DNA from: Myxococcales bacterium
GTDB taxonomy: Bacteria > Myxococcota_A > UBA9042 > JABWCM01
DNA: 47,788 bases
Reading direction: 5' to 3'
Assembly (NCBI GenBank): GCA_013360285.1
Contig: JABWCM010000076.1
Location: 1 to 47,788, forward strand
The notes below the pieces were generated by a model that was given only the letters and a program-made list of their open reading frames with translations, made no database searches and had not been told where the DNA came from. The position numbers and the translations under genes are program-made. Shown here piece by piece: positions 10,962 through 47,788 of this stretch. Position 1 is the stretch's first letter; each line of letters opens with the position of its first letter.

Positions 10962-11161
10962 TGCCCCCGCCAGTTTGGATGCCTTTACCAACGCTGCGTC
11001 ATCGTCCGTTGCAGGCGGCATTTCCTGGGTGTGCTCGATGTCATGTCAAAGACTCGGATGTTTCGTACCCGTTCAACGAACTAAAGTGGGCCCCGCTGTT
11101 TGGACAATAAATCATCTGCTGATGATGGATAACGACCTTCCCTGGTTCGCAGGTGACGACG

Positions 11162-12040
11162 ATGTATACTTCAAGCACTTCTCGTGTGGCACGCACAAAG
11201 GCAGCAAAATCTAAAGGTAGTAAGGGCGTTGGACATTGCCATTCACCTCGGGGACATTTCGCAATGATGCTGGTCTTTTTCCCCGGGGTCTCGTTGCAAG
11301 TCTTCTTCGTGATCGGGCCCCTCATACTCCCCACCGACCTTTATGGCGATATGGGTACAGCCGGTTTCGACAACGGCGACTCAGCGCCTCCGGTCGACGA
11401 ACTTCCCGTAGCGGAGGATCGGTCGATGCAGGAAGATGATAACTGGACGTTTGGCCTGATTCCGGTGGTACCGACCGCTTTGCTGGGCGGCAGGTCTCAC
11501 CCGGATGAGGGGGGCCGCGATGGTTTTGGGTCCGTGATGGCTTTGGGGGTCGTTGGTCGTTGGGAACCGCATCGTGAGGGACGCGCTCAGTTGGGAATGC
11601 TGGCGAGTGTCTGCGCAGCGGGGGGGCCCTTCGACAGCGTCTTGAGGGATGATATCGACGGGGGATCTCCGGCTATCTATGTACGTGTGGGCGGTACCGT
11701 ACGCTGGTCGTATCCCATCATGGATGACGTGTGGTATTTTCACGCCGGATTGAGCGGGGGGTTGTTGGGATTTGCGTTGCCGAATTCCCAAAGCAATCCA
11801 TGGGAAACGGGCCCTGACATGGTTGGCGGGTTAGGAATCTATCTGAACCCCCTGACGGTGGGTTTCGACTGGCCGATCCGCAATTCGGCGTGGACCCTGG
11901 GGCTCCAACTGGACGTCCTGGAGTTTGGGGTAGCGTTTCCCCTCAACGGCGGCCCAGACGGGGACTCGTCCGCTGTCGACCTCCAATACCTATTGCTGAG
12001 CGCCGGCAAAGTCACTGTGCATGTTACGGTGAGGCTGTAG
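11162..12040 (+). CDS. Outer-membrane-barrel-like protein, paralogue 1 of a tandem pair
   Basis: The protein has about 290 aa. A basic N-terminus (TKAAKSKGSKG) is followed by a hydrophobic core (MMLVFFPGVSLQVFFVIG) compatible with a signal peptide. The start is uncertain, with ATG at 11162 or 11264. From about residue 95 it aligns throughout with the next gene: DNWTFGLIPVVPT/LSLGFLPLAPT, AAGGPFD.../AVGGPFD..., GGLGIYLNPLTVGFDW/GGLGIYLVPCTLGFEW, and a shared end (LQYLLLSAGKVTVHVTVRL). The alternating pattern suggests a beta barrel in the outer membrane. I do not recognise a named family. Confidence 0.6.
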   Translation: MYTSSTSRVARTKAAKSKGSKGVGHCHSPRGHFAMMLVFFPGVSLQVFFVIGPLILPTDLYGDMGTAGFDNGDSAPPVDELPVAEDRSMQEDDNWTFGLIPVVPTALLGGRSHPDEGGRDGFGSVMALGVVGRWEPHREGRAQLGMLASVCAAGGPFDSVLRDDIDGGSPAIYVRVGGTVRWSYPIMDDVWYFHAGLSGGLLGFALPNSQSNPWETGPDMVGGLGIYLNPLTVGFDWPIRNSAWTLGLQLDVLEFGVAFPLNGGPDGDSSAVDLQYLLLSAGKVTVHVTVRL

Positions 12041-13192: not shown

Positions 13193-13357
13193 GAGAGTTT
13201 GTGAAAAAATAGCTGCGCAGGCTTTGGGCGGTGGCTTTTGGCCGCCTTGGTTCCGAAAAACCCTGCGCAACTACCCGGATATGACTCGGGTTTTCCAAAA
13301 CCAATCCGCCGCCAAATCCACGCCCACAGTCCGCGCCCATATTCTTTCACAAACTCA
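13193..13357. mobile_element. Repeat family A, copy 2 (165 bp)
   Basis: The best-preserved copy of the element. The left end is GAGAGTTTGTGAAAAAATAG and the right end, on the minus strand, TGAGTTTGTGAAAGAATATG. The interior is almost identical to copy 1 over the last 80 bases and to copy 3 over the first 80. It lies in the intergenic region in front of the Cys-rich lipoprotein gene and could affect its transcription. Confidence 0.8.
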
Positions 13358-13494
13358 AGGATCTGTGCTTAAGTCACCGGCATTGAGGTTCACCACAGGT
13401 GGCTGGAATTATTCGACGAAAAAATCGATCATTCGGAACAGTGCTGCAAACCTTGGACCCAGGTGGTTTGGGCCTTGTCGTTGGAGAAAGAAGC

Positions 13495-15558
13495 ATGAAA
13501 AGATACAAACATTGGCAAAAGAGTTGGCGACGGATGTGGGCGTGGGGATTTTGTTTCCCCCTGCCCGCAGCTAAATCGAGTCACATCGGGAACCGATCGC
13601 AGTTTTTTTTCCAATCGGGGGGTACGAACGTTTCTATCCCCGTTCGTTCCGCATTGTTTTCCCAAATACAAAGTGGGTTGTTGGCCGTTGTTTTGGCCAT
13701 GACGGCTTGTGAGGGGAACCATGAATTTTCCACAACCGAGTTGGTTTCGTCGGAAACGGCTGTTCTGCAACCATCGTTGACCAACGCCGGCCTGGACATC
13801 ATCACTTCCTACTGCGAGCCGGCTTATCACGAAACCCAGTGTATTTCCGCGGCCCAACTGTTGCTTGTTGCGGCTCAGGAATGCAAAAAATCGTCTATGA
13901 CCCTTGCGGGATGGAATCCACAGTCTCCTTGCGACGATGGGTTTCAGGCCGTGGAATATCTGTGTTGTCCTGGACAATCCGCGTGCTGCATCACGGATTC
14001 GGGCCTTGATTTTGTGCCGATTGCCCAGTGCCCACGTCCGCTTCCCCCTTTGTTTTGCGATGTGGAACTTCCCGTATGCTGCCAGACGGAAACGGGTCCG
14101 ACTTTGGTTTCGCCTTCGGAGTGTTCACCCAAAGTACTTCTTGAACCCACGGTTTGCCAGGCCCCCTGCGTTCCCAAAAGTTCGGTCGAAAGTTGTCAAT
14201 CAGCCGAAATCTGGAACATATGGGCCGAAAAACAATGCGCTGAACTGGGTCGACTTCCCGGCGAAATTACCTTGGGACCCGCCTGCGACAAAGGGAAATT
14301 TTTCGGCGCCAAAACCCTGTGTTGTGGTTGGAAAAACGTCTGCTGCAACACGGCGGCCGGTCCCAGCGTGACCACCGCCGACGAGTGCTTCGAAGACCAC
14401 ATCATCGCCTGGGAAGAATGCGTTGTCGAAACCACCCTGGAATGTACTTTTGACGATGGCTGCTGCCCTTCATTAACCGAACCCATCGTCGCCGGATCGC
14501 CGGATGCCGAATGTCCAAAATCCGCCGGAGCCAACTATGACTGGCAATGTTGGGGTGCAAAAACACAGTGCACCAACTGGGGATTTGGAATCGCGGCAGA
14601 AAATTGCGATCCCAATACCATGCCCGATTGCCCGGCGGGCGAACTCAAAGAAGGTTATTTGTGGCGATGTTGGCCCGACGGCACCACCAAATGTACTACC
14701 AAAGACACTGCGGTCGTGGTCGCTTCCGGCGCTTGTGACGGGTTGACCAAACCGACCTGCCCCACTGTCAAAAAAACCAGCGGACCTCAGTTTGAATGGG
14801 GGTGCTGGGAAGGCCAACCCAACTGTTTTAGCTACGGTTATCTGGTTTCGCCAGAATTGCGTATGAGCCTGCCCAAACCAGCGTGTTCACTTACCGACAT
14901 CGCGAAGAAGCAAGGGTACAAATGGCAATGTTGGCCCGACGGAACCTTACATTGTACGTTTTGGGGAACATCCATCGGGTCCACCCTACCCTGCCGCGAT
15001 TTACCCAAACCCAACTGCGGCGGCACCAAAAAAGAAGGTCCCAATTATTCCTGGAAATGTTGGCCCGACGGCTCCTTGAAATGCACCGATTGGGGGGTGG
15101 CCCTGGGTTCTACCACCCCGTGTAAAGATTTGCCGAAACCAACATGCACCACGGGTAAGAAGGGCTCCGAGCCCAATTACGCCTGGCAATGCTGGGGAAG
15201 TACCGCGCAGTGCACCAACTGGGGATACGGCGTTGCGCCGGGAGCCTGCGCCAACCTTCCCAAACCCGACTGCGGCAAACCCAAAACGACCGACGCCCCC
15301 AATTATAAATGGGAATGTTGGGGAGAAACGGCGCAGTGCACCAACTGGGGAACCGGAGTTGCGTCGGGATATTGTTCCAACTTGGCCAAACCGGTGTGCA
15401 AAAAAACCACCAAAAAGGTCAGCGGTCCCAATCTGGCTTGGCAATGTTGGGGTGGAACAGCGCAATGCACCAACTGGGGAATCGCCGTCAACGCCGCACA
15501 ATGTTCGGAACTCCCCACACCTGTATGTGAACCGTCGGGGGAAACCGGGTCAAAATAA
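13495..15558 (+). CDS. Cys-rich secreted lipoprotein with eight C-terminal W-C-W repeats
   Basis: The start at 13495 is chosen for the GGAGAAAG site before it. A lipobox (LLAVVLAMTAC) lies about 66 residues in, so either the true start is a later TTG/GTG codon or there is an unusual N-terminal extension. The first half has many Cys pairs (CCPGQSACC, CCGWKNVCC). The second half has eight tandem units of about 42 residues, from about 14520 to 15550, each with the pattern Y.W.CW...(T)..CTNWG....(C)..LPKP.C. The four Cys per unit suggest small disulfide-bonded modules. It is probably anchored in the outer membrane facing outward. I do not recognise the module; binding or adhesion is a guess. Confidence 0.7.
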   Translation: MKRYKHWQKSWRRMWAWGFCFPLPAAKSSHIGNRSQFFFQSGGTNVSIPVRSALFSQIQSGLLAVVLAMTACEGNHEFSTTELVSSETAVLQPSLTNAGLDIITSYCEPAYHETQCISAAQLLLVAAQECKKSSMTLAGWNPQSPCDDGFQAVEYLCCPGQSACCITDSGLDFVPIAQCPRPLPPLFCDVELPVCCQTETGPTLVSPSECSPKVLLEPTVCQAPCVPKSSVESCQSAEIWNIWAEKQCAELGRLPGEITLGPACDKGKFFGAKTLCCGWKNVCCNTAAGPSVTTADECFEDHIIAWEECVVETTLECTFDDGCCPSLTEPIVAGSPDAECPKSAGANYDWQCWGAKTQCTNWGFGIAAENCDPNTMPDCPAGELKEGYLWRCWPDGTTKCTTKDTAVVVASGACDGLTKPTCPTVKKTSGPQFEWGCWEGQPNCFSYGYLVSPELRMSLPKPACSLTDIAKKQGYKWQCWPDGTLHCTFWGTSIGSTLPCRDLPKPNCGGTKKEGPNYSWKCWPDGSLKCTDWGVALGSTTPCKDLPKPTCTTGKKGSEPNYAWQCWGSTAQCTNWGYGVAPGACANLPKPDCGKPKTTDAPNYKWECWGETAQCTNWGTGVASGYCSNLAKPVCKKTTKKVSGPNLAWQCWGGTAQCTNWGIAVNAAQCSELPTPVCEPSGETGSK

Positions 15559-15571
15559 TAAGCTCAGAGGC

Positions 15572-16225
15572 TCACCGCACCCGATTTTTCACAGCGTAAT
15601 AAATCAACGCTGCCGGCCAGCAAAAGACCACCAGCAATACAAACACCGGTAAGTTAAATGACTCGGCGGGAGTCACGGTAACCACGCCCGGCCTGCGTAA
15701 TGACGCCATGACTTCATCACGCAGTCGTTTCCAATCGGGTGGCACCACCGAGGCACCACAATGGCCGCAAGTGGGGGGTCCGGTCCAATCCGCAACACTC
15801 AGTTTTACCGAGGCACCACAGGACAAACATCTGGTTTCGTGGGCGTGCTGATGCCTAAGCCGGCCGTCCAGGATGGTATCGGTCGCCCCATCGTGTACGA
15901 AATACAGGTTTTTGCGACTATTCAGGATACGTAAGGCTTCGAGAACTTCGGTACGGCGAAAGCCCGCGCCGGCGACGAGATCGTCCATCCGAACCACCGC
16001 GGTTTGCTCGATAATACGCCACAGCGCCAAGATCCTACGTTCTTTGTAACGATAATATCCACCGGCTATAAGAAGACCTATCGGGGCCAACGCGAACAAC
16101 AACGCCACAAGAAAAGACCAGGTGTCATGCACTGATCCCACAAGCACAAGAAACGACACCAACAGCAGGGGAATGCCGATTCGAATCAGGATATCGTCGC
16201 GCTTAAATAACTGTTTGCCTGCCAT
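15572..16225 (-). CDS. Membrane protein with winged-helix-like and zinc-ribbon segments
   Basis: The 217-aa protein has two N-terminal transmembrane helices (about residues 15-31 and 38-55). A cytosolic helix-turn-helix-like segment follows (WRIIEQTAVVRMDDLVAGAG, then FRRTEVLEALRILN), then a four-Cys zinc ribbon (CLSCGAS...CGHCGAS) and a C-terminal transmembrane helix (LPVFVLLVVFCWPAALIYY). The layout resembles PCI/wHTH-bearing membrane proteins of unknown role often found in myxobacteria-like genomes. It converges with the Cys-rich lipoprotein gene and is separated from the esterase gene by the inverted-repeat element D. Confidence 0.6.
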   Translation of the reverse strand: MAGKQLFKRDDILIRIGIPLLLVSFLVLVGSVHDTWSFLVALLFALAPIGLLIAGGYYRYKERRILALWRIIEQTAVVRMDDLVAGAGFRRTEVLEALRILNSRKNLYFVHDGATDTILDGRLRHQHAHETRCLSCGASVKLSVADWTGPPTCGHCGASVVPPDWKRLRDEVMASLRRPGVVTVTPAESFNLPVFVLLVVFCWPAALIYYAVKNRVR

Positions 16226-35389: not shown

Positions 35390-35489
35390 ACTCTTCTTGG
35401 TGTGAACCTCACCGAGATCTTGGTGATTGACATCGGTCACCGAACCCCTCAGATTAGCACCTTGACGGTCCGAAATGACGGAGGTTTCG

Positions 35490-37550
35490 ATGTCGTCCAG
35501 CCACGGTCATGAACCAGCCAAAACGCCGGCAAAACAACCCGCCGCCATTCAGAAAAAACCACGCCCCCCTGTGCCGAAGCAGCCCAGTCCAATCTGGCGC
35601 GCGCTTGCGACCCGCGTGCCCCCGGGAGTGGACGTCGCACCGGCCAACGATCCCGGCGAAAAACGGGCCGAACAGCTTGCCGACGCGGTTACCCAACCCA
35701 ATGGCCTTTTCAAAACACCCGACACGACCTCTACCAACGACTGGCCCATGTCTTCAGTGAGCCCGCCGGAAGGATTGGGAGCCGGGCAAACACTGGATGG
35801 AGGCTTACAGAACTATTTTGAAGGGCGACTTGGGCGTTCGCTGGACCACATTCGGATTCACACGGACCAGGCAGCGGCGGATATGTCGGCATCGATCAAC
35901 GCCCAAGCGTTTTCGTTTGGCAACCACATCGCGTTCGGCAAAGGGGAATTTGCGCCCGAAAATCAAGAAGGTAAACATCTGATAGCCCACGAGTTGGGCC
36001 ATACCCTGGAATCTCCGAGCCGCGCCCAGTCGACTTTGTTCCGCAAAGTGACCGAACCCGATGTAGACGCCGAGTTTTCCAAATGGTGTGACGACAACAA
36101 ACGGGTTAAAGACAAAACCCACAAAGAATTTCCTTGGTCGGCGTGGGATTTTATTCGCCCGCAGATCCAGGACAACCAGATGAAGGCGTTGCCCAAACCC
36201 GCGGACAAAGCGGGGCAACAAAAATGGGAAGACAACTTCACAAAAGCGGAAATCATCGGCGGATGGCTGGCCAATCTGAAATCGACCACTACGAGTGATG
36301 CGGTCAAAGAAGATGCCGAATCCAAAATTTATTTTATCGCCGACACCATGGTGCAAGCGGGGCTTATCAGCAAAGGGATGGCGCAGGCTGCCAACACCGA
36401 TGATTCCCAAAAGGAGTTGATTTACACCCAGGTGCTCAACAACCCGTCCGGAGCCACTGCCGCGGAATTGACAACGATTTTTAAGTTTCAAACCAACGGC
36501 AAAACCGATCCGAACGGCGTACCGTTTATTGAGACCTTGTGTTCAAGCGATGGCAACAGCCTCCAAAAAATGGACACGGCCCGTACCCGAGCCATGTTCG
36601 AACACATGCAAACCACCTATCCCAACCACGAAAAGATAGTCGAAGCCATGGCGGCAACCCTTATTTTTAATCCGGGAGTCCGAACGTCTATTGCCGACGA
36701 AATGATGAAAGGAACGTTGGGCACACCGGAGTTGTTGTTCCAGATTTTACAGCACCCCTATTTTAAAGACCCGGAATACGACGGCGCGATGTTGATCAAC
36801 ACCCCCAACCAGGACGTGGACAAAGACACGGAAAAACACTGGAAAGACGACATGCCGTTTGCTTACAAGTACAAACAGCAATATTACGTAACGTACCTAA
36901 TCGGTTTAGCCAAAAAACACGCCATCGACATCAAACCACCCGCCGATCACAAAATCGCCACATTACAGGCCTGGCTCGACACCAACACCGAAAACATCGG
37001 CCAAGCCGCAGCCAAAGAATATCCGACAAACAACGACGCAATCTTTGCGATTTACAACAACATCGCCGACATCTTCTTTTATCATACCGACAAAAACGTA
37101 ACGCCGGACAACCAAGGTAAACTGTCGAAACTAGGCACCGAGGGAAAACCCGACAAAATGCGAATCGAAGCCGACTGCGACGTATTCGCCACCTACGCGA
37201 TGCGCCTGCACGCAAGCGCAGGGTATGAAACCATAGGATATATGGGCCTTTATCCCCAGGGCAACTTCGTCGGTCGCGACGCCCACGCCGCAGCATTGAT
37301 CCGCAAAAATGGTGCGTACTTTGTCATCAACAACAAAGGGGTGTACGACAGCGGGATTACCGAAGCCAAAACCGACGAAAACAAACAAGACGCGATTACG
37401 GAAATGAAAAGCATCGCCATCGACCAGACCTACGGCGACCCCAAACCAACCCAATGGAATATCTATTACGCCGACGCGTTGGCCAAAGGTGCCCTGCCCG
37501 CAGATTTTCTGTCCAAACCCCAAACCTACCGCCGCACCGATTTGGAATAA
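35490..37550 (+). CDS. DUF4157 (eCIS-core) protein with C-terminal Cys/His/Asn peptidase-like domain
   Basis: A 686-aa protein starting at ATG 35490 after CGGAGG. The N-terminus is Pro/Lys-rich and disordered. A DUF4157 domain follows (about 95-180): LGRSLDHIRIHTDQAAA, SFGNHIAFGKGEF and the metalloprotease-like AHELGH (His167-His171). This domain marks cargo and effectors of extracellular contractile injection systems, although no sheath or tube genes lie in the window. The C-terminal part has ADCDVFATYA (Cys563), RDAHAAALI (His599) and FVINNKG (Asn614/615), the order of papain-/transglutaminase-like cysteine enzymes. It is probably a secreted toxin or protein-modifying effector; both activities are inferred from motifs. 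It converges with cas2. Confidence 0.7.
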   Translation: MSSSHGHEPAKTPAKQPAAIQKKPRPPVPKQPSPIWRALATRVPPGVDVAPANDPGEKRAEQLADAVTQPNGLFKTPDTTSTNDWPMSSVSPPEGLGAGQTLDGGLQNYFEGRLGRSLDHIRIHTDQAAADMSASINAQAFSFGNHIAFGKGEFAPENQEGKHLIAHELGHTLESPSRAQSTLFRKVTEPDVDAEFSKWCDDNKRVKDKTHKEFPWSAWDFIRPQIQDNQMKALPKPADKAGQQKWEDNFTKAEIIGGWLANLKSTTTSDAVKEDAESKIYFIADTMVQAGLISKGMAQAANTDDSQKELIYTQVLNNPSGATAAELTTIFKFQTNGKTDPNGVPFIETLCSSDGNSLQKMDTARTRAMFEHMQTTYPNHEKIVEAMAATLIFNPGVRTSIADEMMKGTLGTPELLFQILQHPYFKDPEYDGAMLINTPNQDVDKDTEKHWKDDMPFAYKYKQQYYVTYLIGLAKKHAIDIKPPADHKIATLQAWLDTNTENIGQAAAKEYPTNNDAIFAIYNNIADIFFYHTDKNVTPDNQGKLSKLGTEGKPDKMRIEADCDVFATYAMRLHASAGYETIGYMGLYPQGNFVGRDAHAAALIRKNGAYFVINNKGVYDSGITEAKTDENKQDAITEMKSIAIDQTYGDPKPTQWNIYYADALAKGALPADFLSKPQTYRRTDLE

Positions 37551-37638: not shown

Positions 37639-37908
37639 TTACACAATCCGAAACCCCTCCGGCAATCGAGGCATCGCCGCACGCCCCAGCAACACCGCTT
37701 TTCCGTGGCATCCCAGACAGATGGGGTGAATTCTCACGTTGTCTTCCCGCGGTTTGATAATCGGTCGTATGATGCCCGCGACCTCGGTGACGGTTGCCCG
37801 TTCCACCACAAATACGCTGTATTGCACCCTAGAGCCCACCTTGAGCAACGTTTTGGCCAACTTGGTCCGGCGCCTGTCATTCGGAATGTCGTAGGAGACG
37901 ATCAGCAT
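37639..37908 (-). CDS. cas2: CRISPR adaptation protein Cas2
   Basis: An 89-aa protein with the ferredoxin-like Cas2 pattern: VSYDIPNDRRRTKLAKTL, where Asp7 is the conserved acidic residue, then GSRVQYSVFVVERA and DNVRIHPICLGC. It bridges two Cas1 dimers in the spacer-integration complex. The start at 37908 overlaps the cas1 stop by 7 bp; the ribosome-binding site is weak, so expression probably depends on translational coupling. It is last in the seven-gene operon starting at 44527. Confidence 0.93.
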   Translation of the reverse strand: MLIVSYDIPNDRRRTKLAKTLLKVGSRVQYSVFVVERATVTEVAGIIRPIIKPREDNVRIHPICLGCHGKAVLLGRAAMPRLPEGFRIV

Positions 37909-38927
37909 GGGGGTTCGGCCTGAGCCGCTTGTGTGTCCCCCCATGGTGGGTCCATTTCCTCGTCGGGTAACGACGGCTCCATGATTTTCCGGCGCAGTTC
38001 GGTGAGTTCGTTGTGCAACTGTTCCCGCACCGATTTGCCTTGCGGCACCACATCCCCCATCGACGCTTCGAACACGCCCACAAACCGGTGTAAGGTTTCT
38101 TTGTTCATTCGTACTCCGGCGTCCGTTTTTTCAAAATCGTTCAGCGAAACCATCCTTCGGTTGAGCACCGACAACACCATTCGGCTGACCGCGGGTCGAT
38201 GTGGCTCCATCATATCCAACGCCAACGAACTACGCCCATACCGAATCCCATGATAATAGCCGATTCGCGGATCGAGGCCCGCCGTTTCCAGCCGACTTTC
38301 CACCTCCAATGCCAACAAGGTAAAACCCAGGTTCAACAACGCGTTGACTTCATTGTGAGCCGGATGTTTGCTGCGCCGTTCAAACAAAAACGGCGGCTTC
38401 ACCATGATATGAAACGCTTCAAACCACGCCGAAGCAGCAGCTCCTTCCAATCCCATCAACGTGGTGGAGTTTGCCGCAGAATCCAAACAGCCCACCATCT
38501 GCCGCATCCTTTCCACTTTGGGGCTCAACATTTCCGCTGTATCGGGATGGTTCCGCATATAACGCATCACGATTTCTACGTCGCCGCGGATTTTTTTTGC
38601 AACGATCGACCGCGCAAATTCCAGCCGAAATTCCATATCTCCAAACCGAGCATGTTGTGCCATCCGCAAAAAAATATTGCCTTCTTCCGGGGCAACGATC
38701 TGCCCCCGCAACCGCCCCGAGCGCGACAACAAAAACAAAGGAATACGATGTTTTAACAGCAGATGAACCGCCGTAGTCGTGATTTGCGCCGAGCCAAACA
38801 ACAACACCCGTTCCACGTCGTCCAAAGCCCAGCGATCGACACGCTGTTTGTCGATGTTGGCGGCAATCATCCCGTCGGCCCGGTAAATTTTGGCTGCCGG
38901 GTGAGTTACATAAATCGCTTTTTTCAT
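37902..38927 (-). CDS. cas1: CRISPR integrase Cas1
   Basis: A 341-aa Cas1. The N-terminal beta domain ends near residue 80. The alpha domain carries the metal-binding set: Glu in LMGLEGAAASAW, His in GYYHGIRYGRSSLAL, and Glu in DMMEPHRP. It is the nuclease/integrase for new spacers. Unlike many RT-containing loci, Cas1 is a separate chain and not fused to the reverse transcriptase. AGGAGA precedes ATG 38927, and the start overlaps the stop of the RT-primase gene (ATGA). The C-terminal 40 residues are a charged extension. Confidence 0.95.
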   Translation of the reverse strand: MKKAIYVTHPAAKIYRADGMIAANIDKQRVDRWALDDVERVLLFGSAQITTTAVHLLLKHRIPLFLLSRSGRLRGQIVAPEEGNIFLRMAQHARFGDMEFRLEFARSIVAKKIRGDVEIVMRYMRNHPDTAEMLSPKVERMRQMVGCLDSAANSTTLMGLEGAAASAWFEAFHIMVKPPFLFERRSKHPAHNEVNALLNLGFTLLALEVESRLETAGLDPRIGYYHGIRYGRSSLALDMMEPHRPAVSRMVLSVLNRRMVSLNDFEKTDAGVRMNKETLHRFVGVFEASMGDVVPQGKSVREQLHNELTELRRKIMEPSLPDEEMDPPWGDTQAAQAEPPC

Positions 38928-41476
38928 GGGGTTTCTCCTGTCAAGGCACCCGCCGCCCACCGATGAGGGGGAAGCAGTTTGGGCAAATCCGCTTCCGGTT
39001 CTACCTCGACCGCTACAACTCCTTCCGTTGGCCGAGGCAAAAACGCGGTTTCCCGCCTGCCCCGCAAAACCTCCCGCCATTGCCTACGAAACCCGCCGGC
39101 GAACAATACCGGCGTGGGATAACCTCCGGACTTCGCCACGTTGCCGAATTCACATCGGCAGGGCTCCACATCCGGTGGCAAGGGGTGTTTTTCCTTAAGC
39201 CGCGCACAACCGATAGGCAATCCCGTCAACTTTTGGATTTGCCGGTCGGTTTCCCGCACGTCGTAATTTCGGCATTTGCCGACAATCGCGTGAATGGCCC
39301 GGGTGCCCCCCGAATCCAAATGCCCCAACGTATATAAGATCGACAACCGCTCAGCGTGGTTTAGATGCCCCACGGCGGCGGCTTTGTCCGCCAGAAACCG
39401 CAAAATGGAGCATCCATCCATGACACCGGCCACTTGTTTGCCGAATTGACTCCAATCGGGAGTGGCGGTACCGACCTGCCCCAACCCAGACGTCTCGACT
39501 GGAAGTGGAGCAGGTACCAGCGGAGCGAACGCCGCCACCGGAATGGGCTCCCCCATTAAAATGCCGCTCAAATCGGATTCGATTTCCGCGCCGTCAAACC
39601 ACCACAGGCGACTTGGGTTTCCTGTACCCGAATGTTTACCGCAGGGCAACGCCATGGCTTGGTTGGCCAACTCCGGAGCGTCATCTTGACCCGGAAAAAT
39701 CTCGACGGTCACCCCATCAGCCGATCTTCCGGCAAGGGATACCAATCGGCGTAACGCTTGGGCCAACTCGTCTGCCGGCAGGGGATCCTGCAACGGAAAC
39801 CACACATGCATTCCCCGGCCCCCGGTTTGTTCCAGCAATACCCGCATTCCCAACCTCGATGCCACAGCAGCCACTGCCTGCGCCAACGCCGTCACCCCCA
39901 GCACCGCGTCCGCATGCACGGCGTCGATGTCGATGACTCCCAACAAGGTATCGTTGTTGGGAAGCCGGGGGCGAATTGCAATACTCCGACTCCCCATCAG
40001 GTGTTCCTGAACATCGGCGGGACCGGGAGGACGGTCCACCCAGGCGTAATCCCGGTCCCCCGAATTGGCTGTGGACAGGTCGGCCATTTCAAATCCATCT
40101 TGACCTGCACAAAACAACGCAAGAAAAACGTCGATCCGTTCTTCTTCCACCACCGGCACCCCTTCCGGGTCTTCATCCGGTACGGCAACAACAGTTTGCA
40201 GGGTCATCGCCTGAAAAAACCGTTGTTCGGCTTCGGCAAATTGGCCGGCGATGGCCAACGTTTCTGCCTCTGTGAGCAGCAAATCCGCACCTTCTGGAGC
40301 GCCGCCTTCGAGATCCCATGACACATCCCAGTTCTCGCCATCGTGGTCCATGTCCAACCAATCCTCGCCGTTTTCGGCAGGCTGGTTTGAATCGGGTTCG
40401 GTCGTGGTGGGCTCGTGGGGAAAAACCGATTCTCCCAACTGCTGGATAATCAACTGCCGCAAAATCGGACCATGAACCCCCAAATCGGAATGTTCGGGCA
40501 ACGGCACACGAAAATATTGAGTCCAACCCAAAACCAAGGGCATCAACAATGAGGTGACATCGGCGTTGGGTGTTTTGGAAACGATCTGTTCCGCCCGGTG
40601 TCGCAACACACTGACTGCACCCTTGGAAACCCGTTTTCCCGAATCGTCGAGATAAAACCCGAGCCACTCAAAGCCCAATGCACCATCCACCACCTGGGTG
40701 GCTTTCGGTTTTAATCGTAATCCCAGTTTTTTGGCCTCGCTACGAACCAATTCCAGGGCTTTGTGCACCGTTGCCCGATCCGCCGCAGTGACACACAAAT
40801 TGTCGCAATACCGCACCAACGCAAAACCCGCTTTTGCCATGGCATTGTCAAGCGGCACCATCGCCAGATTGGACAATGCCGGGGACAACGCGGCCCCCTG
40901 AGCCAATCCAATCCCCGGTTTGGTGCGATGGTGGGTCAACAACAATTGAAGGGTATCTAAACACGATGGTGGAACGGGGAGGGACCGAAGGGGGGGCAGT
41001 ACCGCTCGATGGGGAATGGAGTCAAAAAAGTCGCGGATGTCGGTCAACATGACCCACTTTTTGCCTGACTGTACATTTTTGACAACGGTGTCGGAAGCCG
41101 CAAGCGCCGACCGTCGGGGGCGATAAGCAAAGGCCGATGGATGTAATACCGTTTCAATGACCGGCTCAACAATCCCTCGCAACGCTTCAATGACGATGCG
41201 GTCTTGGACCGACGGGATACACAGTGTCCGAAACCGCCCGTCGGGTTTGGCTTTTCTGATTTTGAGCACCGGTTTGGGTTTGTAGGTACCCGAATCGAGA
41301 CCGGTTTTGAGCTGAGCCAGATTGGTTTCCAACTGTTGTTCATAAACCGCGGGAGTAACCCCATCCAAACCCGCAGCCGGACTGCGGCGGGCGATATCAA
41401 AAAACGCTTTTCGTAACATGGCCGGCGAAGCCCACATCGAGGCTGCATACGATACGTTTGAATTAATTGCTGTCAT
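38924..41476 (-). CDS. Reverse transcriptase fused to an AEP-type primase-polymerase
   Basis: An 850-aa two-enzyme fusion. Residues about 10-290 are a group-II-intron-like reverse transcriptase: motif A TDIRDFFDSI (Asp146), motif B LAQGAALSPALSNL, motif C VRYCDNLCV at 221-229, where YxDD has become YCDN, and a thumb-like WLGFYLDDSGK. An acidic, helical linker spans about 360-460. Residues about 480-660 are an archaeo-eukaryotic primase domain: VIDIDAV (Asp516, Asp518), GGRGMHVWFPL (His557), VEIFPG and LPCGKHSG. A Cys-containing primase C-terminal region follows (C689, C734, C757, C773, C775). The GGAG before ATG 41476 sets the start. It probably copies RNA or DNA into precursors for Cas1-Cas2. 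Confidence 0.9.
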   Translation of the reverse strand: MTAINSNVSYAASMWASPAMLRKAFFDIARRSPAAGLDGVTPAVYEQQLETNLAQLKTGLDSGTYKPKPVLKIRKAKPDGRFRTLCIPSVQDRIVIEALRGIVEPVIETVLHPSAFAYRPRRSALAASDTVVKNVQSGKKWVMLTDIRDFFDSIPHRAVLPPLRSLPVPPSCLDTLQLLLTHHRTKPGIGLAQGAALSPALSNLAMVPLDNAMAKAGFALVRYCDNLCVTAADRATVHKALELVRSEAKKLGLRLKPKATQVVDGALGFEWLGFYLDDSGKRVSKGAVSVLRHRAEQIVSKTPNADVTSLLMPLVLGWTQYFRVPLPEHSDLGVHGPILRQLIIQQLGESVFPHEPTTTEPDSNQPAENGEDWLDMDHDGENWDVSWDLEGGAPEGADLLLTEAETLAIAGQFAEAEQRFFQAMTLQTVVAVPDEDPEGVPVVEEERIDVFLALFCAGQDGFEMADLSTANSGDRDYAWVDRPPGPADVQEHLMGSRSIAIRPRLPNNDTLLGVIDIDAVHADAVLGVTALAQAVAAVASRLGMRVLLEQTGGRGMHVWFPLQDPLPADELAQALRRLVSLAGRSADGVTVEIFPGQDDAPELANQAMALPCGKHSGTGNPSRLWWFDGAEIESDLSGILMGEPIPVAAFAPLVPAPLPVETSGLGQVGTATPDWSQFGKQVAGVMDGCSILRFLADKAAAVGHLNHAERLSILYTLGHLDSGGTRAIHAIVGKCRNYDVRETDRQIQKLTGLPIGCARLKEKHPLPPDVEPCRCEFGNVAKSGGYPTPVLFAGGFRRQWREVLRGRRETAFLPRPTEGVVAVEVEPEADLPKLLPPHRWAAGALTGETP

Positions 41477-41813
41477 CCAGTTCTCCATGACGGTTGGTCG
41501 AAATCGACATCGGCAACTCTTCCATTTCCCCATGCCGATTGAGCACAAACCTGGTGGGGGCAAACACCGGTTGAACGACGCGAGGCGGCAATGGGGGCGG
41601 ATTGGCTGCCGATTGTCGCTGAGGCGTATTCACGCGCGCATCACCACGAACCCGCGTTTCCGAAACCCGGGGCACTGCCCCATAGGGCCGGCGTGGCGGC
41701 TGCGGCGCCGTCGCAGACGAGTTCCGTACCATTGCCCAAATCGCCACAACCAATGCGGCAACCGCCAGCACGCACACCAAAATAAGGAGACCTGCCAAAA
41801 TTTCTGGGTTCAT
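41463..41813 (-). CDS. Small single-pass membrane protein of the operon
   Basis: A 116-aa protein with one N-terminal transmembrane helix (residues 5-29, EILAGLLILVCVLAVAALVV) and a Pro/Arg/Gln-rich, probably disordered tail ending NRHGELDDSN. GGAGG precedes ATG 41813, which overlaps the E1 stop (ATGA). Its own end overlaps the RT-primase start by 14 bp. I do not recognise the family. It has no beta-grasp pattern and no C-terminal Gly-Gly, so it is not an obvious ubiquitin-like modifier. It may anchor part of the machinery to the membrane. Confidence 0.75.
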   Translation of the reverse strand: MNPEILAGLLILVCVLAVAALVVAIWAMVRNSSATAPQPPRRPYGAVPRVSETRVRGDARVNTPQRQSAANPPPLPPRVVQPVFAPTRFVLNRHGEMEELPMSISTNRHGELDDSN

Positions 41814-42988
41814 GGACCGCCTCCGCATACCGGGCAATCATCCGCCCGTATCGGTTGGTAGATCACCCTATCCATGGGATTTTCAAAAACCCACGTGTCG
41901 GGTTCCAACGCCATAAATAAAATGGTGCCCTGCTGTTTTCCATGGATAAAATATTCGGACCACAGTTCGGGAGATGGAACGGGGGGCTCGGTTTCGATTT
42001 TGAATTGAGACAAAAACGCCACCGCAATTCGGGCGGCCCATGCCGAGGCGATTCCCACGTTGATGGGTAATGCCGATACCGCCGTTTTCGCCACATCGGC
42101 GGCGTAGGGAATGAGCGTACCCGCACCAAATTTGGGCGCCACGTCCCCTTCGGCTTTGGAACTGCACCAGTGGCACGGGCCTGCTTGCGCATTGGGAACC
42201 AATTCGATGCGGGCACTTTGAGCCCCGTCGGAAAGCGCAACATACAACGCGGCAATCTTGTGGCGAGCGCACAAGCCGTTGATAACCAACCGCGAATCGA
42301 GGGTGTCGGTTGCTGCAATCACCAGCCCGGGGCGGAAGTCGACAAGTAGTTGTTCAAATTCGTCGGTTTGCGTAACGACGTCGTTAACAACACCCCGCAC
42401 TTTGGCATCCGGAACGATGGCACAAAGATGGTTTGCCCACACATCGACTTTGGGAAGGCCGATTTCGGCTATGCCGGCGGAAACGCCCCAGCGGATGAGG
42501 TTTTCTACCGACAAAACGTCGGCGTCACAGGCAACGACCGACGCCCCGAGGCGTACCAGGCGGGCACCGATGTCGCTGCCGACGGACCCACATCCCACCA
42601 ACAATACACGGGTGGAAAGCAGCAGGTCCATTGTCGGCAACGCGCGCACCCGGTCCCGGTAACGATTGGGATTCAAAAAACAAACCCCGAGTCGACGCCC
42701 CTGAAACGAAGCCAGAGGATCGAGGCCGCCGGTGCGGGGTTGTAATACCGGCGTCTGGTCGTCATTACAAAACTGCGTGCCGATTGCTATGGGGATAGTT
42801 GTTCCCCCGACTTCGTCGGTTGTGAGTGTCCAGCGGGGAAACGATTCGTTCGTCACATAAGCAAACAACGGAGGGGGATTTTCTCCCATTAACACGTCTT
42901 CGATGTCGGGGGGAACCAAAATGGTTCCCAAGGGTGCCATAGAACGTTTTTTGATACGAGCCAAATGTTGTTGAAGTGGATTATTCAT
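41810..42988 (-). CDS. E1/ThiF-like adenylating enzyme
   Basis: A 392-aa protein. A Rossmann adenylation domain starts at about residue 125: nucleotide-binding GCGSVG at 132-137, acidic Asp155, the SVENLIRW segment with Arg166 (where E1 enzymes have D..NL.RQ), Lys180, and ATDTLDSR with Asp228. Zinc-binding Cys pairs are at C272/C275 and C385/C388, as in ThiF/MoeB/E1 proteins. The N-terminal 120 residues are a separate domain. E1 enzymes adenylate the C-terminus of a ubiquitin-like protein and pass it to an E2. GGAGG precedes ATG 42988, which overlaps the JAB gene stop (ATGA). Confidence 0.88.
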   Translation of the reverse strand: MNNPLQQHLARIKKRSMAPLGTILVPPDIEDVLMGENPPPLFAYVTNESFPRWTLTTDEVGGTTIPIAIGTQFCNDDQTPVLQPRTGGLDPLASFQGRRLGVCFLNPNRYRDRVRALPTMDLLLSTRVLLVGCGSVGSDIGARLVRLGASVVACDADVLSVENLIRWGVSAGIAEIGLPKVDVWANHLCAIVPDAKVRGVVNDVVTQTDEFEQLLVDFRPGLVIAATDTLDSRLVINGLCARHKIAALYVALSDGAQSARIELVPNAQAGPCHWCSSKAEGDVAPKFGAGTLIPYAADVAKTAVSALPINVGIASAWAARIAVAFLSQFKIETEPPVPSPELWSEYFIHGKQQGTILFMALEPDTWVFENPMDRVIYQPIRADDCPVCGGGP

Positions 42989-43962
42989 AACGAACCTCCG
43001 GACGATTGGATTGTCGGGGACGAACACGTAAGGCGGCGTTTTCGAGTTCTGAATAGGCGGTGAACCCAAGTAATCGGCGGGTCCCCGTCCCCGGCACGCA
43101 GCCCTTCCTCCACCACGTCGGTGAGCCGATGTAAGCTGCTCCATCCGTAACGAAGAGGGATGGGTGTCAGGGGGCCTGACTGCAATTGGCCGGAGAGCAC
43201 CAGGGGTGCCCCCATGGGGTATTCCGGTGGAAACACTACAGAAACTTCGTGGCCACCTCGGACAATATGGGCCGCAAGAGTTCCACAGGATAACATCTGC
43301 AACTTGGTCTCGGCGTGTAGCCGACTACGCACCTCTTGAAGATCCCGTTCGATGCGTGCTGATGTTTCGGGGGGAATCACAACAGGGGCTGCCGTGGTGG
43401 TCGGACCGGGGTTCAACAGTCGTTCCAAAGGCGGAACGGACTGTTTTAACCTATTGATGACAACCGCATCATCGTCGGGCACCACGGCCAACTGAAGGGG
43501 TTCCATCCACAATCCATAACGCGGCATCAGGGAAACACGGAATCCCAACAACAACTCATCGCCGTTGTGACCGGGGGTGCCCAACAACAAATCAACATGA
43601 GACCGGGCGGGTGTGGTTTCGGTGAGTAATTTTCCAGCGGTTTCCATGTCGGTGCTGGACAAAAACGGCAGGTGCATGGGGTGAATATGCCAATCGCCGA
43701 CATAGGTCAGGTTGGGAAACGTACGTCGAATCGCGGCGATCGCCGTATTTTGGTAATGGGCGTCGGTTTCGAGGTGGGCGTACCCCTGGTCGGCATTGGG
43801 ACCGGTAGGAACCGCCACCACGATAAGCGGCGGTGACTGGGATTCACAAGCAAGAAGCGACCCACCTTGCTCCAATCGGTGTTGTACGGAAGTCCGAAGG
43901 GAGCCCAGAATCGTGTTCTGGGCCGACTCGGTAAGATAAACGGTGCGTTGTTCGACATTCAT
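42985..43962 (-). CDS. JAMM/JAB isopeptidase fused to an inactive E2-like domain
   Basis: A 325-aa protein. Residues about 1-150 are a JAB/MPN domain with the JAMM zinc motif complete: Glu40 (LLACE), His92 and His94 (WHIHP), Ser102/103 and Asp105 in the H-x-H-x10-D spacing. Such enzymes cleave ubiquitin-like proteins from targets or trim their precursors. Residues about 200-300 resemble the UBC fold (HEVSVVFPPEYPMGAPLVLSG, then WSSLHRLTDVVEEGL) but have no Cys at the active position, like UEV/RWD variants. GGAG precedes ATG 43962. It starts 10 nt after the E2 stop and overlaps E1 by 4 bp. Confidence 0.85.
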   Translation of the reverse strand: MNVEQRTVYLTESAQNTILGSLRTSVQHRLEQGGSLLACESQSPPLIVVAVPTGPNADQGYAHLETDAHYQNTAIAAIRRTFPNLTYVGDWHIHPMHLPFLSSTDMETAGKLLTETTPARSHVDLLLGTPGHNGDELLLGFRVSLMPRYGLWMEPLQLAVVPDDDAVVINRLKQSVPPLERLLNPGPTTTAAPVVIPPETSARIERDLQEVRSRLHAETKLQMLSCGTLAAHIVRGGHEVSVVFPPEYPMGAPLVLSGQLQSGPLTPIPLRYGWSSLHRLTDVVEEGLRAGDGDPPITWVHRLFRTRKRRLTCSSPTIQSSGGSL

Positions 43963-43972
43963 CGGTCTGCTC

Positions 43973-44527
43973 CTACCAGGGGATTCCGGTTTCAACCCAT
44001 GCTTCGTACAAAACAAGCCATACGGAAACCCACGCCAAAAACGTGACCAACGTCGATCTGGCGGTAAATGCACCCCCTTCGTCCAGGCACAGGTGTCCAT
44101 CAATATATTGATGGGGGGCATTGGGAATCAGGTCCGGGGAAATGACATAAGCGCGCGGCATCACACCGGTACCATAAGCCGGCGGAAGCGTCACCATGAC
44201 ATGGTATCGCTGTTTTAATGTCGCGGTGGGACCAATGAATCCATGAACATAAGGGGTTCCGTCATCATGGAGGTCGATGCCAAACAAGGGGTATTCTCGG
44301 GAAAGAACAGCTTTTTCGGTGAAGATACGTTTTTCCAGGTCGGCATTCCACTCAAAAGCCATGGCCCACCGATGGTTTTTGACTTCCACTCCTTGTGGTT
44401 CCGGAGTGTTTTTTTCCGGTTTGACGGACGCAGGAGCGGATTGAAGGTACACATGCCCTTCTCTGACATCGAAAATCTGGCCTTCCCGGAGTTTTTTCCG
44501 GAGTTCTTCAAGTTGTTTCGGGTCCAT
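43973..44527 (-). CDS. E2-like ubiquitin-conjugating protein
   Basis: A 184-aa protein and first gene of the operon. The last 130 residues follow the UBC order seen in bacterial E2 proteins: a strand pair, RYHVMVTLPPAYGTGVMPRAY (the 'YP.~P' region), then PHQYIDGHLCLDEGG with His139 and putative catalytic Cys147 ('H.y.dG.lCL'), and a C-terminal helix VWLVLYEAWVETGIPW. E2 proteins receive a ubiquitin-like protein from E1 as a thioester. AGGAAA precedes ATG 44527. The order E2, JAB, E1 matches BilB-BilC-BilD of the Bil anti-phage system, but no BilA-like modifier gene is present upstream. Confidence 0.82.
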   Translation of the reverse strand: MDPKQLEELRKKLREGQIFDVREGHVYLQSAPASVKPEKNTPEPQGVEVKNHRWAMAFEWNADLEKRIFTEKAVLSREYPLFGIDLHDDGTPYVHGFIGPTATLKQRYHVMVTLPPAYGTGVMPRAYVISPDLIPNAPHQYIDGHLCLDEGGAFTARSTLVTFLAWVSVWLVLYEAWVETGIPW

Positions 44528-44655: not shown

Positions 44656-46182
44656 ATGCAAACAGATAGAATTGATTCTAAACGGGAGTTTGACGCAGCG
44701 AGTTGGCCGGAAACATGGAAAGCATGTGTTGTGTTTATTCGTGAACTACTGGCGGTAAAAAATCAGGTCAAAACCGAAGAAATTCCGGAGGCGGACGCCG
44801 AGCAATTTTTTTGGACCAAGATGTTAAAAAAGCCGCACGACGGAACGGGTCAGCGGACACAATTGGCGCACAAACGTAAACGGCGGTCGGAAATTGCTGC
44901 CGGAAGTGTCGGCGGATGGGTTTGGGCGGCCGTACAACGGATTTTTGCTCTAGGGGAAAAAATAGGAAAAACAGCGTTTGTCACCGGGGGTGTCGCCAAA
45001 GACAGTCGGGCGAATTATTTGAAGATCAAGCGGTCTGCTCTTGCTGCCGCTTTGGGTTTGGTGCCGAATGTTGAATTGTGGATGAACCGGATCGAAGCTG
45101 CGGCAAGAATTTTCGAGGAATGTTGCGAAAACGTGAAAACAAAGACGTCGCGTAAAGGGGCTACCAAACGACCGAAGCCACGACATGGGGTGCGGCGGGA
45201 CGTTGTGCTGGGCTGGTTGCGGAAACATCGTAGGCTTCATCGAAAAGGGGACGCGGTGTTTATTCGGATCCGCATGGGAGAGATTTCGGAACACGTACGG
45301 CGGTGGATTCAACACGGCGATGTGGAGCATGTATCGAATGCCGAGCCGATGTTGTCCCATTATTTACACGTATTTGAGCAACACGACTTACGGGTGGAAA
45401 TGGCTACAGCGGCCGCAGCGGGAAGAAATGAGCGGCATCATGACCCCAGAGCTGCGGCAGAAAAAGCGCACGCGTTGATCGAGGGGCTCGGCTGGGAATG
45501 GATGCGGGCAAAGGAGTTTGGCAAACTCTACGAGTTGGTGCTGACGAAGGACATTCGCCTGGGATTGTTGGACACTGTGGAAAAATTGGCGCAAAAAACG
45601 TCCGATTTCACGGCGCTGCGGCTGGTGGAGGTTTCACGCGGTGTGTGGTGGCGGTTGAGGGCAGTAGTGGCACAAATGCAGGGTATGAGCGGAACAAAAG
45701 TTTTGACGTGGCTGAACCGGGCATTGACCCATGTTGTCAAAGCAGGCCATGAATCGTTGGCGTTGTCGATTTTGGGCGACATGGCAACGGCACAGGCAAA
45801 GATGGGGCTAGTCAAAGAAGCGATGATTACTATAGAGAATGCAAATGAGTTGGCCCTAGCACACGGAAATGACCGAAGACGATTCCGATTGTTGTGTATT
45901 GGTGCCGAGTTGGCGCATCAATTGAATCATCCGGGATATGCCATGATGCAGTTCCGACAAGCGCAAATGATTTTTGATGGCCTTCAGACGGCAGACCCAA
46001 AACTGTTGTCCGACGGCGTACCCAAGGTATGGTATCAGCAGAGTTTTCAGAAGGAGCTGGACCGGGTAGCGGAGGTGTTGGCGAAGGATGTAATCAAAAC
46101 ACCGGTCACGCTGGAGTCGATCACCGGAATGAAAATGGATGAACGACTGATTATGGGGATAGAAGACGACGAGGAAGATTAA
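44656..46182 (+). CDS. Unknown 508-aa protein divergent from the conjugation/CRISPR operon
   Basis: I do not recognise this protein. It has no signal peptide or membrane segment. The N-terminal 100 residues contain a basic patch (AHKRKRRSE). Residues about 100-135 (AFVTGGVAKDSRANYLKIKR) could form a helix-turn-helix-like unit. A second very basic linker (about 160-180, SRKGATKRPKPRHGVRRD) follows. The C-terminal 200 residues are helical repeats in TPR style (HESLALSILGDMATAQAKMG, EAMITIENANELALAHG, GYAMMQFRQAQMIFDGL), and the end is acidic (GIEDDEED). Basic and TPR-like parts suggest a nucleic-acid-binding adaptor or sensor. It shares the promoter region and palindrome with the operon and lies between it and the CRISPR array. 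Confidence 0.8.
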   Translation: MQTDRIDSKREFDAASWPETWKACVVFIRELLAVKNQVKTEEIPEADAEQFFWTKMLKKPHDGTGQRTQLAHKRKRRSEIAAGSVGGWVWAAVQRIFALGEKIGKTAFVTGGVAKDSRANYLKIKRSALAAALGLVPNVELWMNRIEAAARIFEECCENVKTKTSRKGATKRPKPRHGVRRDVVLGWLRKHRRLHRKGDAVFIRIRMGEISEHVRRWIQHGDVEHVSNAEPMLSHYLHVFEQHDLRVEMATAAAAGRNERHHDPRAAAEKAHALIEGLGWEWMRAKEFGKLYELVLTKDIRLGLLDTVEKLAQKTSDFTALRLVEVSRGVWWRLRAVVAQMQGMSGTKVLTWLNRALTHVVKAGHESLALSILGDMATAQAKMGLVKEAMITIENANELALAHGNDRRRFRLLCIGAELAHQLNHPGYAMMQFRQAQMIFDGLQTADPKLLSDGVPKVWYQQSFQKELDRVAEVLAKDVIKTPVTLESITGMKMDERLIMGIEDDEED

Positions 46183-47435: not shown

Positions 47436-47788
47436 CCTGCAGGACCCTCCCTCACTCATGGGGGATTGAAACCAGATAGTTTTGAAACCGGAGGGAAATC
47501 CCCGTCTTCACCTGCAGGACCCTCCCTCACTCATGGGGGATTGAAACACCCTGGCTCTTACTTACTAGTCAAAAGAACGAACACCTGCAGGACCCTCCCT
47601 CACTCATGGGGGATTGAAACTTTTTGATGGCCAGCTCTTCGGCGGCTCTTTGTTGGTAGCCTGCAGGACCCTCCCTCACTCATGGGGGATTGAAACTGGG
47701 AGCGGCCGGCGGGGGGTCGCAGGGCTTGGGCCCTGCAGGACCCTCCCTCACTCATGGGGGATTGAAACACGATCCACGGCCAGGAAAC
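47436..47788 (+). CRISPR. CRISPR array, five 37-bp repeats, continuing beyond the window
   Basis: Five identical 37-bp repeats start at 47436, 47511, 47584, 47660 and 47732. Each begins with the palindrome CCTGCAGG and ends with GGGGGATTGAAAC. The four complete spacers are 38, 36, 39 and 35 bp (47473-47510, 47548-47583, 47621-47659, 47697-47731), and a fifth begins at 47769. The ATTGAAAC end is the usual 8-nt crRNA 5' handle of type I and type III systems, which sets transcription rightward with the leader on the left. No degenerate repeat is seen, so the array continues. Effector and cas6 genes are absent here and may lie past 47788. Confidence 0.97.

What the first reader, a model, noticed from the sequence alone, without database searches (positions are those of the whole stretch)
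37639..44527. One operon joins a ubiquitin-like conjugation cassette (E2, JAB, E1) to RT-primase, Cas1 and Cas2
Seven minus-strand genes run from 44527 to 37639 with junctions of 10-nt gap, ATGA overlap, ATGA overlap, 14-bp overlap, ATGA overlap and 7-bp overlap. Products in order are E2-like, JAMM peptidase + E2-like, E1-like, a membrane protein, RT + primase-polymerase, Cas1 and Cas2. Such tight coupling implies one functional unit. E1/E2/JAB cassettes are known in CBASS and Bil defence, and RT or prim-pol proteins are known beside Cas1-Cas2, but I know of no described system that combines them. Protein tagging could regulate spacer acquisition, mark RT-primase/Cas1, or modify phage proteins.
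Basis: partly seen in the sequence, partly recalled or inferred. Interest (0 to 1): 0.95.

Follow-up and report, generated by a model that had tools for sequence, protein, structure and literature searches.

The report
Ubiquitin-like tagging of CRISPR memory polymerase
In a bacterial genome, the genes of a ubiquitin-like tagging pathway form one tight gene cluster with the enzymes that write viral memories into CRISPR arrays; a distant relative carries the same pairing, and a conserved tail on the CRISPR polymerase suggests that the polymerase itself is likely the tag that is joined to a partner protein.

Summary
In detail: seven minus-strand genes, 44527 to 37639, encode E2, JAB (plus E2-like domain), E1, a small membrane protein, RT-PrimPol (CART-CAPP type), Cas1 and Cas2. 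The link is not accidental: all 11 close RT-PrimPol relatives listed on contigs of 7.5 kb or more share their contig length with a close JAB or E1 relative (indirect), and a distant genome of the same phylum (L058) carries JAB-E1, E2, membrane protein, RT-PrimPol, Cas1, Cas2 in series (read as DNA). New here: (1) 17 of 17 close RT-PrimPols carry a [PN]H[EDR]WA tail, 15 exactly at the C-terminus; 0 of 30 other frames have it. CBASS cyclases conjugated by Cap2 likewise end in a conserved Gly or Ala. (2) Linked proteins have YxDN for YxDD in the RT (16 of 17) and an intact primase DxD (18 of 18); unlinked RT-PrimPols are the reverse (0 of 8 for each). I propose that E1 and E2 join the RT-PrimPol C-terminus to a partner, perhaps Cas1, and that JAB reverses this. 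No conjugate has been shown; L058 lacks the tail; the window's own tail has a nine-residue extension; some related cassettes have no detected RT-PrimPol.

The parts
43973..44527 (-). E2-like conjugating enzyme, 184 aa; H139 and C147 (HxxxxGxxC) conserved with two other E2s
   Evidence: PADLOC E2 5.2e-16; alignment with L058 and L095 E2s; phmmer 6.4e-12 to L058 E2
42985..43962 (-). JAB/JAMM isopeptidase with a C-terminal E2-like (probably inactive, UEV/RWD-type) domain, 325 aa
41810..42988 (-). E1-like adenylating enzyme, 392 aa; Zn-type tetrad CxxC...CxxC invariant, no other invariant Cys in 24 rows
41463..41813 (-). Small protein with hydrophobic N-terminus (membrane protein by eye), 116 aa, no lysine, C-terminal NRHGE motifs
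   Evidence: translation, K=0; similar C-terminal NxYGE peptides on the two small proteins after E1 in L095
38924..41476 (-). RT-PrimPol fusion (CART-CAPP architecture), 850 aa
40799..40810 (-). RT motif 5, YCDN (usual YxDD)
39923..39937 (-). Primase motif I, VIDID (DxD intact)
38954..38968 (-). Conserved tail PHRWA (family PHEWA)
38927..38953 (-). Nine-residue extension AGALTGETP after the tail; would have to be trimmed
   Evidence: a second relative with an extension is P0097
37902..38927 (-). Cas1, 341 aa
   Evidence: Cas_Cas1 1.5e-78
37639..37908 (-). Cas2, 89 aa
   Evidence: CRISPR_Cas2 1.7e-16
47437..47788 (+). CRISPR array, five copies of a 36-nt repeat ending GATTGAAAC, spacers 36-40 nt, cut by the contig end; eight more copies at the end of contig C332
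44656..46182 (+). Divergent gene of unknown function between operon and array (508 aa), membership in the system not shown
   Evidence: no family over a cut-off

Best explanation
The operon encodes a CRISPR adaptation module (RT-PrimPol, Cas1, Cas2) together with E1-, E2- and JAB-like proteins that are predicted to attach the RT-PrimPol, through its conserved C-terminal ...HEWA tail, to a partner protein, likely Cas1, and to remove it again. Steps: (1) shown by sequence: the genes are coupled, a distant locus has the same set, and the tail is present in 17 of 17 close relatives. (2) Inferred: JAB trims the extension AGALTGETP in this genome to expose ...HRWA. (3) Inferred: E1 adenylates the terminal Ala; because no invariant Cys is left outside the Zn-type tetrad, the acyl group probably goes straight to E2 Cys147. 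(4) Inferred: E2 joins RT-PrimPol to a lysine. The target most in keeping with the gene order is Cas1, which would give, after translation and reversibly, the same link (polymerase C-terminus to Cas1) that RT-Cas1 gene fusions have in other type III systems; this target is a guess. (5) Inferred: JAB releases it. (6) Inferred from motifs: the working polymerase is the primase domain, since the RT active site is YxDN.
For: Linkage: RT-PrimPol relatives on contigs of 7.5 kb or more share a contig length with JAB or E1 relatives in 11 of 11 cases (11 of 16 over all lengths; 0 of 16 shared with 30 distant E1s). Second locus in another class: L058 has JAB-E1 fusion, E2, membrane protein, small ORF, RT-PrimPol, Cas1, Cas2, all on one strand. 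Tail: 17 of 17 close RT-PrimPols, exactly terminal in 15; positions -1 A, -2 W, -4 H invariant in those 15 after a linker with about 10% pairwise identity; 0 of 30 stop-terminated frames of other CAPPs and RT-CAPPs in the loci fetched (that 30 includes L058). Precedent: cGAS-like cyclases from operons with full-length Cap2 and Cap3 end in conserved Gly/Ala, those of other operon types do not; the terminal residue forms a thioester with Cap2; Cap3 cleaves a linear fusion right at the cyclase C-terminus (passages of PMC10097602). Deconjugation is scarless and the B. cereus cyclase is conjugated through a C-terminal Ala (passages of PMC11153139). Catalytic residues: JAMM motif invariant in 22 rows, E1 residues that I recall as the adenylation site invariant in 24 rows, E2 H/C invariant in three E2s. 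CAPPs interact with Cas1 in yeast two-hybrid tests, less than with Ago (passages of PMC8211822).
Against: No conjugate has been seen. The L058 RT-PrimPol, although linked to E1/E2/JAB, has no such tail, so the substrate there must be something else or the tail is dispensable. The window's own tail is not terminal. The E1 has no conserved candidate catalytic Cys beyond the Zn-type tetrad, whereas Cap2 needs one in its E1 domain. From the cassette side the link is weaker: on contigs of 7.5 kb or more, 9 of 12 JAB and 8 of 17 E1 contig lengths recur among the RT-PrimPol hits, and L095/L096 show an E2-JAB-E1 cassette without RT-PrimPol or Cas1 in the stretch held. Shared contig length is indirect; the DNA of those contigs could not be fetched, so E2, Cas1 and Cas2 beside the close relatives were not seen. 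A promoter-like site lies at the RT start. There is no sequence evidence for Cas1 as the target.
Confidence: 0.55

Rival explanations
1. RT-PrimPol is conjugated through its tail, but to a membrane or envelope protein, so that the adaptation polymerase is held silent at the membrane until infection releases it, as proposed for the B. cereus CBASS cyclase held on PspA.
For: The cassettes read here that have E1, E2 and JAB together (window, L058, L095/L096) are each followed by a protein that looks membrane-bound by eye; cyclase-PspA precedent.
Against: The window's small membrane protein has no lysine, so it is not itself an obvious target; no PspA-like protein among those scanned.
Confidence: 0.2
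2. The cassette uses another modifier (for instance a ThiS/MoaD-like or unnoticed ubiquitin-like protein encoded elsewhere) and tags Cas1, RT-PrimPol or phage proteins; the HEWA tail is only a docking peptide for E1, JAB or Cas1.
For: L058 lacks the tail yet has the cassette; some bacterial E1-E2-JAB operons carry a Ub-like protein (passages of PMC1779556).
Against: No ubiquitin-like protein was found in the operon; a mere docking peptide need not sit at the very last residue in 15 of 17 relatives with Ala invariant.
Confidence: 0.17
3. The two gene sets are neighbours in a defence island and work independently.
For: Related E2-JAB-E1 cassettes exist without cas genes in the stretch held.
Against: Overlapping genes, shared contig lengths in relatives, a divergent second locus, and RT and primase motif states that go with the linkage.
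Confidence: 0.04

Closest known systems
CART-CAPP adaptation modules (Caloramator australicus type; PMC8211822, PMC10415136; passages seen)
   Same: RT fused to an AEP primase-polymerase beside cas1-cas2; CRISPR array near
   Different: E1, E2, JAB and membrane protein in the operon; RT YxDN and primase DxD intact, whereas in the published fusions tested the RT is active and the primase part inactive; conserved C-terminal HEWA tail
Type II CBASS (Cap2 E2-E1 fusion, Cap3 JAB; PMC10097602, PMC11153139; passages seen)
   Same: E1, E2, JAMM isopeptidase; partner enzyme with a conserved C-terminal small residue; Cap2 is the best PDB hit of the E1 profile and Cap3 matches the JAB model
   Different: No CD-NTase found; E1 and E2 are separate proteins; the tailed partner is an RT-PrimPol in a CRISPR adaptation operon
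Bacterial E1-E2-JAB operons of Iyer et al. 2006 (PMC1779556; passages seen) and Bil/Bub systems (Bil recalled; Bub seen as PDB entries 9ea4-9eav)
   Same: E1, E2 and JAB genes side by side, often mobile
   Different: Those in the passages seen have a Ub-like protein, a nucleotidyltransferase, a metallo-beta-lactamase or a metal-binding protein; none of the passages names cas1, cas2 or RT as partner
RT-Cas1 fusions of type III CRISPR (CART-Cas1 in passages of PMC10415136)
   Same: RT joined, ahead of Cas1, for spacer acquisition
   Different: Here the proteins are separate genes; a covalent link would be made after translation (inferred)

Membership tests
CART-CAPP adaptation module | RT domain fused to AEP primase-polymerase in one protein | tested here: met
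   RVT_1 106-304 and AEP 516-649 in one ORF; NCBIfam NF040561 146 bits, below its cut-off of 200
CART-CAPP adaptation module | next to cas1 and cas2 | tested here: met
   ATGA and 7-bp overlaps
CART-CAPP adaptation module | RT catalytic motif YxDD | tested here: not met
   YCDN; 8 of 8 RT-CAPPs without a detected cassette have YxDD. Hence described by architecture, not filed as an ordinary member
Type II CBASS | CD-NTase gene in the operon | tested here: not met
   none among the seven proteins and the divergent gene
Type II CBASS | E2-E1 fusion Cap2 | tested here: not met
   separate genes
Type II CBASS | JAMM isopeptidase | tested here: met
Type II CBASS | partner enzyme ending in conserved Gly/Ala | tested here: inconclusive
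   15 of 17 close relatives end in WA; the window's protein has a nine-residue extension
Bil / Bub (bacterial ubiquitin) systems | dedicated ubiquitin-like protein in the operon | tested here: inconclusive
   no Ub-like hit in Pfam, NCBIfam, PADLOC; very divergent Ub folds could be missed
Any ubiquitin-like conjugation pathway | covalent E1/E2-dependent conjugate | not testable with these tools
   needs biochemistry

The most novel reading that the evidence does not exclude
A CRISPR memory-writing polymerase is itself the 'ubiquitin': E1 and E2 charge the C-terminal Ala of an 850-residue RT-PrimPol and weld it reversibly onto Cas1, a switchable, post-translational version of the RT-Cas1 gene fusion. 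It would be the first ubiquitin-like conjugation pathway built into CRISPR adaptation, and its polymerase has swapped catalytic duty from the RT to the primase domain.
Probability: 0.35. Interest if true: 0.96.

Novelty: categorically new. Interest (0 to 1): 0.9.

Why it matters
Ubiquitin-like conjugation in bacteria is known for cyclases (CBASS) and, as recalled, for Ub-like proteins in Bil-type defence; finding it fixed to the memory-writing step of CRISPR would show that tagging pathways also serve adaptive immunity. It also gives a direct test of how an adaptation polymerase is coordinated with Cas1-Cas2, which a passage of PMC10415136 says remains to be established. The motif pattern predicts which of two polymerase domains works in each RT-PrimPol lineage.

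Tried and rejected
Independent recruitment of the cassette in L058 and in the window clade: the E1 tree places them apart, but one clade is not rejected (p-AU 0.245), and the primase tree puts L058 beside the close clade (90/82, not starred). Claim dropped; it can be one old association or two.

Finding more loci: genome-contig scan with the E1 profile gave 2 distant loci only; viral-contig scan with the JAB profile none; the genome search with the E1 profile in 52, 71, 317, 1 and 90 genomes (limits 1e-20, 1e-20, 1e-30, 1e-30, 1e-30) found no close E1 outside the window's genome, only three distant ones: L085 beside a SMODS cyclase (2.5e-7), L083 beside a cyclase-like ORF (by eye), L082 near a DUF87/TrwB-type ATPase. 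First-look candidates were scored only in part (for example 4 per genome, 3). JAB profile in 377 genomes: 4 with a match, own genome included. The close relatives are therefore known only as proteins with contig lengths. E2 presence in them was not tested (no protein search left).

E1 catalytic Cys: looked for and not found beyond the tetrad (Cys206 in 18 of 24 rows lies in the nucleotide-binding part).

tblastn of P0098 in plasmids: the limit of 5000 records was reached; the 20 rows listed all cover only the RT part (query 1-354) and none of the records covers 80% of the query. CRISPR array in L058: none found within 2.6 kb after cas2, only two 96-nt repeats. A 16S gene for naming the genome was not found in it; the phylum (Myxococcota, by source names of three close JABs, two E1s and two RT-PrimPols) is an inference. 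The JAB protein's E2-like domain was not covered by the fold comparison. The 508-aa divergent gene, membrane topology and the spacers' targets were not studied.

Rows dropped before counts: P0106 has no RT part and is left out of the YxDN count. The E1 tree used 13 of 40 close relatives plus the window's own, 14 of 30 distant ones and 5 locus rows; 5 of those 33 were dropped. Frames open at a contig end are left out of the tail count; that count uses loci fetched's matches, not every match, and some of its 30 frames are single-domain pieces or AEPs of other kinds. A1 holds 24 and A2 22 of the sequences found.

Full report

Surroundings. A CRISPR array starts at 47437 and runs off the contig; its repeat, with up to 3 mismatches, occurs in the genome only here (5 copies) and at the end of contig C332 (8 copies, opposite orientation), which fits one array broken by assembly (inference). 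The genome has a second cas1 on C73 beside an array with another repeat and nine RAMP matches on three contigs, C171, C284 and C89, so type III-like interference genes exist elsewhere in the genome; which of them uses this array is unknown.

Is the linkage conserved? The protein searches gave 22 close JAB relatives, 40 close E1 relatives (30 further, distant ones below 62 bits) and 16 close RT-PrimPol relatives, the window's own left out; searches scored only the 8,000 or so candidates that share most words. The listing gives the longest contig of each. Eleven of 16 RT-PrimPol contig lengths equal that of a close JAB or E1 (11 of 11 at 7.5 kb or longer), none equals that of the 30 distant E1s; by a rough model of random lengths the chance of 11 or more is about 5e-21. 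In the other direction, at 7.5 kb or longer, 9 of 12 JAB and 8 of 17 E1 lengths recur; the rest may be limits of the search or cassettes with another partner. Eight E1 relatives seen are fused to a JAB in one protein (P0026, P0033, P0037, P0040, P0057, P0058, P0060, P0061).

A second locus with its DNA. In G179, another class of the same phylum, L058 holds JAB-E1 fusion (9150-11384), E2 (11288-11851), a 275-aa protein that looks membrane-bound, a 74-aa ORF, RT-PrimPol (13206-15923), Cas1 and Cas2, all on one strand. It was found because the JAB search and the CAPP search hit the same contig 5 kb apart. Its E2 matches the window's at 6.4e-12. In G049 and G020, of the window's class, an E2-JAB-E1 cassette in the window's gene order stands with two small proteins that look membrane-bound and, in L095, a TraG/TraD-type ATPase and a replication-relaxation protein, without RT-PrimPol, Cas1 or Cas2 matches in the stretch held. 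So the cassette is a separable module that has been joined to CRISPR adaptation.

The tail. The alignment of RT-PrimPols shows a variable linker and then PHEWA at the very end. All 17 close members (window included) have [PN]H[EDR]WA; 15 end there; the window and P0097 carry 9 and 10 further residues. Among the 15, A at -1, W at -2 and H at -4 are invariant; the positions sampled from -14 to -36 agree in 7-14% of pairs, with a partly conserved stretch between (G at -13 in 74% of pairs). Of 30 stop-terminated frames with CAPP or RT-CAPP similarity from the other loci fetched, none has it (L058 is one of the 30). In CBASS, cyclases from operons with Cap2 and Cap3 end in conserved Gly or Ala and are conjugated through it, and no such conservation was found in other operon types (PMC10097602, passages; PMC11153139, passages). 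The parallel is the main reason for naming RT-PrimPol as the conjugated protein.

The catalytic swap. RT motif 5 is YxDN in 15 of 16 close members that have the RT part (P0098 has YADD) and in L058: 16 of 17. It is YxDD in 8 of 8 RT-CAPPs without a detected cassette (L061, L067, L068, L077, L078, L079, L080, P0114). The primase DxD is intact in 18 of 18 linked proteins and in 11 of 11 stand-alone CAPPs in the alignment, but in 0 of 8 of those RT-CAPPs. For published CART-CAPPs an inactive primase and active RT were reported (passages of PMC10415136). Because linked proteins are related, these counts are not independent events; the Fisher values should be read with that in mind. Whether YxDN abolishes RT activity is not known here.

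Mechanism and limits. Shown: operon, second locus, tail, motif states; shown indirectly: linkage in the close relatives. Inferred: conjugation, trimming by JAB, transfer through E2 Cys147, Cas1 as target, primase as the working domain. Against: L058 has no tail, the window's tail is extended, E1 lacks a further invariant Cys, many E1 contigs have no RT-PrimPol among the hits, and no conjugate has been seen. The small membrane protein, without lysine and with NxxGE-type C-terminal peptides like those after E1 in L095, may anchor or recruit the machinery.

Known or new. Ten literature searches in open-access PMC listed no paper that I could recognise as joining ubiquitin-like conjugation to CRISPR adaptation; several lists were shown only in part (for example 20 of 650, 20 of 184, 12 of 30,373), I saw listings only apart from the five papers whose passages are cited, and subscription papers and most preprints are not covered. 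Each half is known; the joined system fails the defining tests of CBASS (no CD-NTase, no Cap2 fusion) and departs from CART-CAPP in its RT motif. I therefore rate the system as categorically new, with the caution that a stricter reader could call it a new variant of CART-CAPP adaptation.

Noticed in passing
L095 9848-13232 (G049:C214) and L096 (G020:C83): E2-JAB-E1 cassette in the window's order, followed by two small membrane-like proteins with C-terminal NxYGE peptides and, in L095, a TraG/TraD-type ATPase; probably a mobile element.
   Followed up: partly
L061, L067, L068, L077-L080: RT-PrimPols without a detected cassette keep YxDD but have lost the primase DxD; the reverse of the window's lineage.
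   Followed up: yes
window 44656-46182: Divergent 508-aa gene between operon and array with no family over a cut-off; possible regulator.
   Followed up: no
window 35475-37550: Gene with an eCIS core domain (PF13699, 2.8e-23) convergent with the operon, next to cas2.
   Followed up: no
L026 14178-15143 (G000:C73): Second CRISPR array with a different repeat, near a second, divergent cas1.
   Followed up: no
L085 8931-11965 (G464) and L083 7217-10109 (G141): Distant E1 proteins beside cyclase-like genes, CBASS-like (SMODS domain found for L085; L083 judged by eye).
   Followed up: partly
L084 2039-10018 (G000:C332): A 2659-codon ORF on the short contig that carries eight further copies of the repeat.
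   Followed up: no
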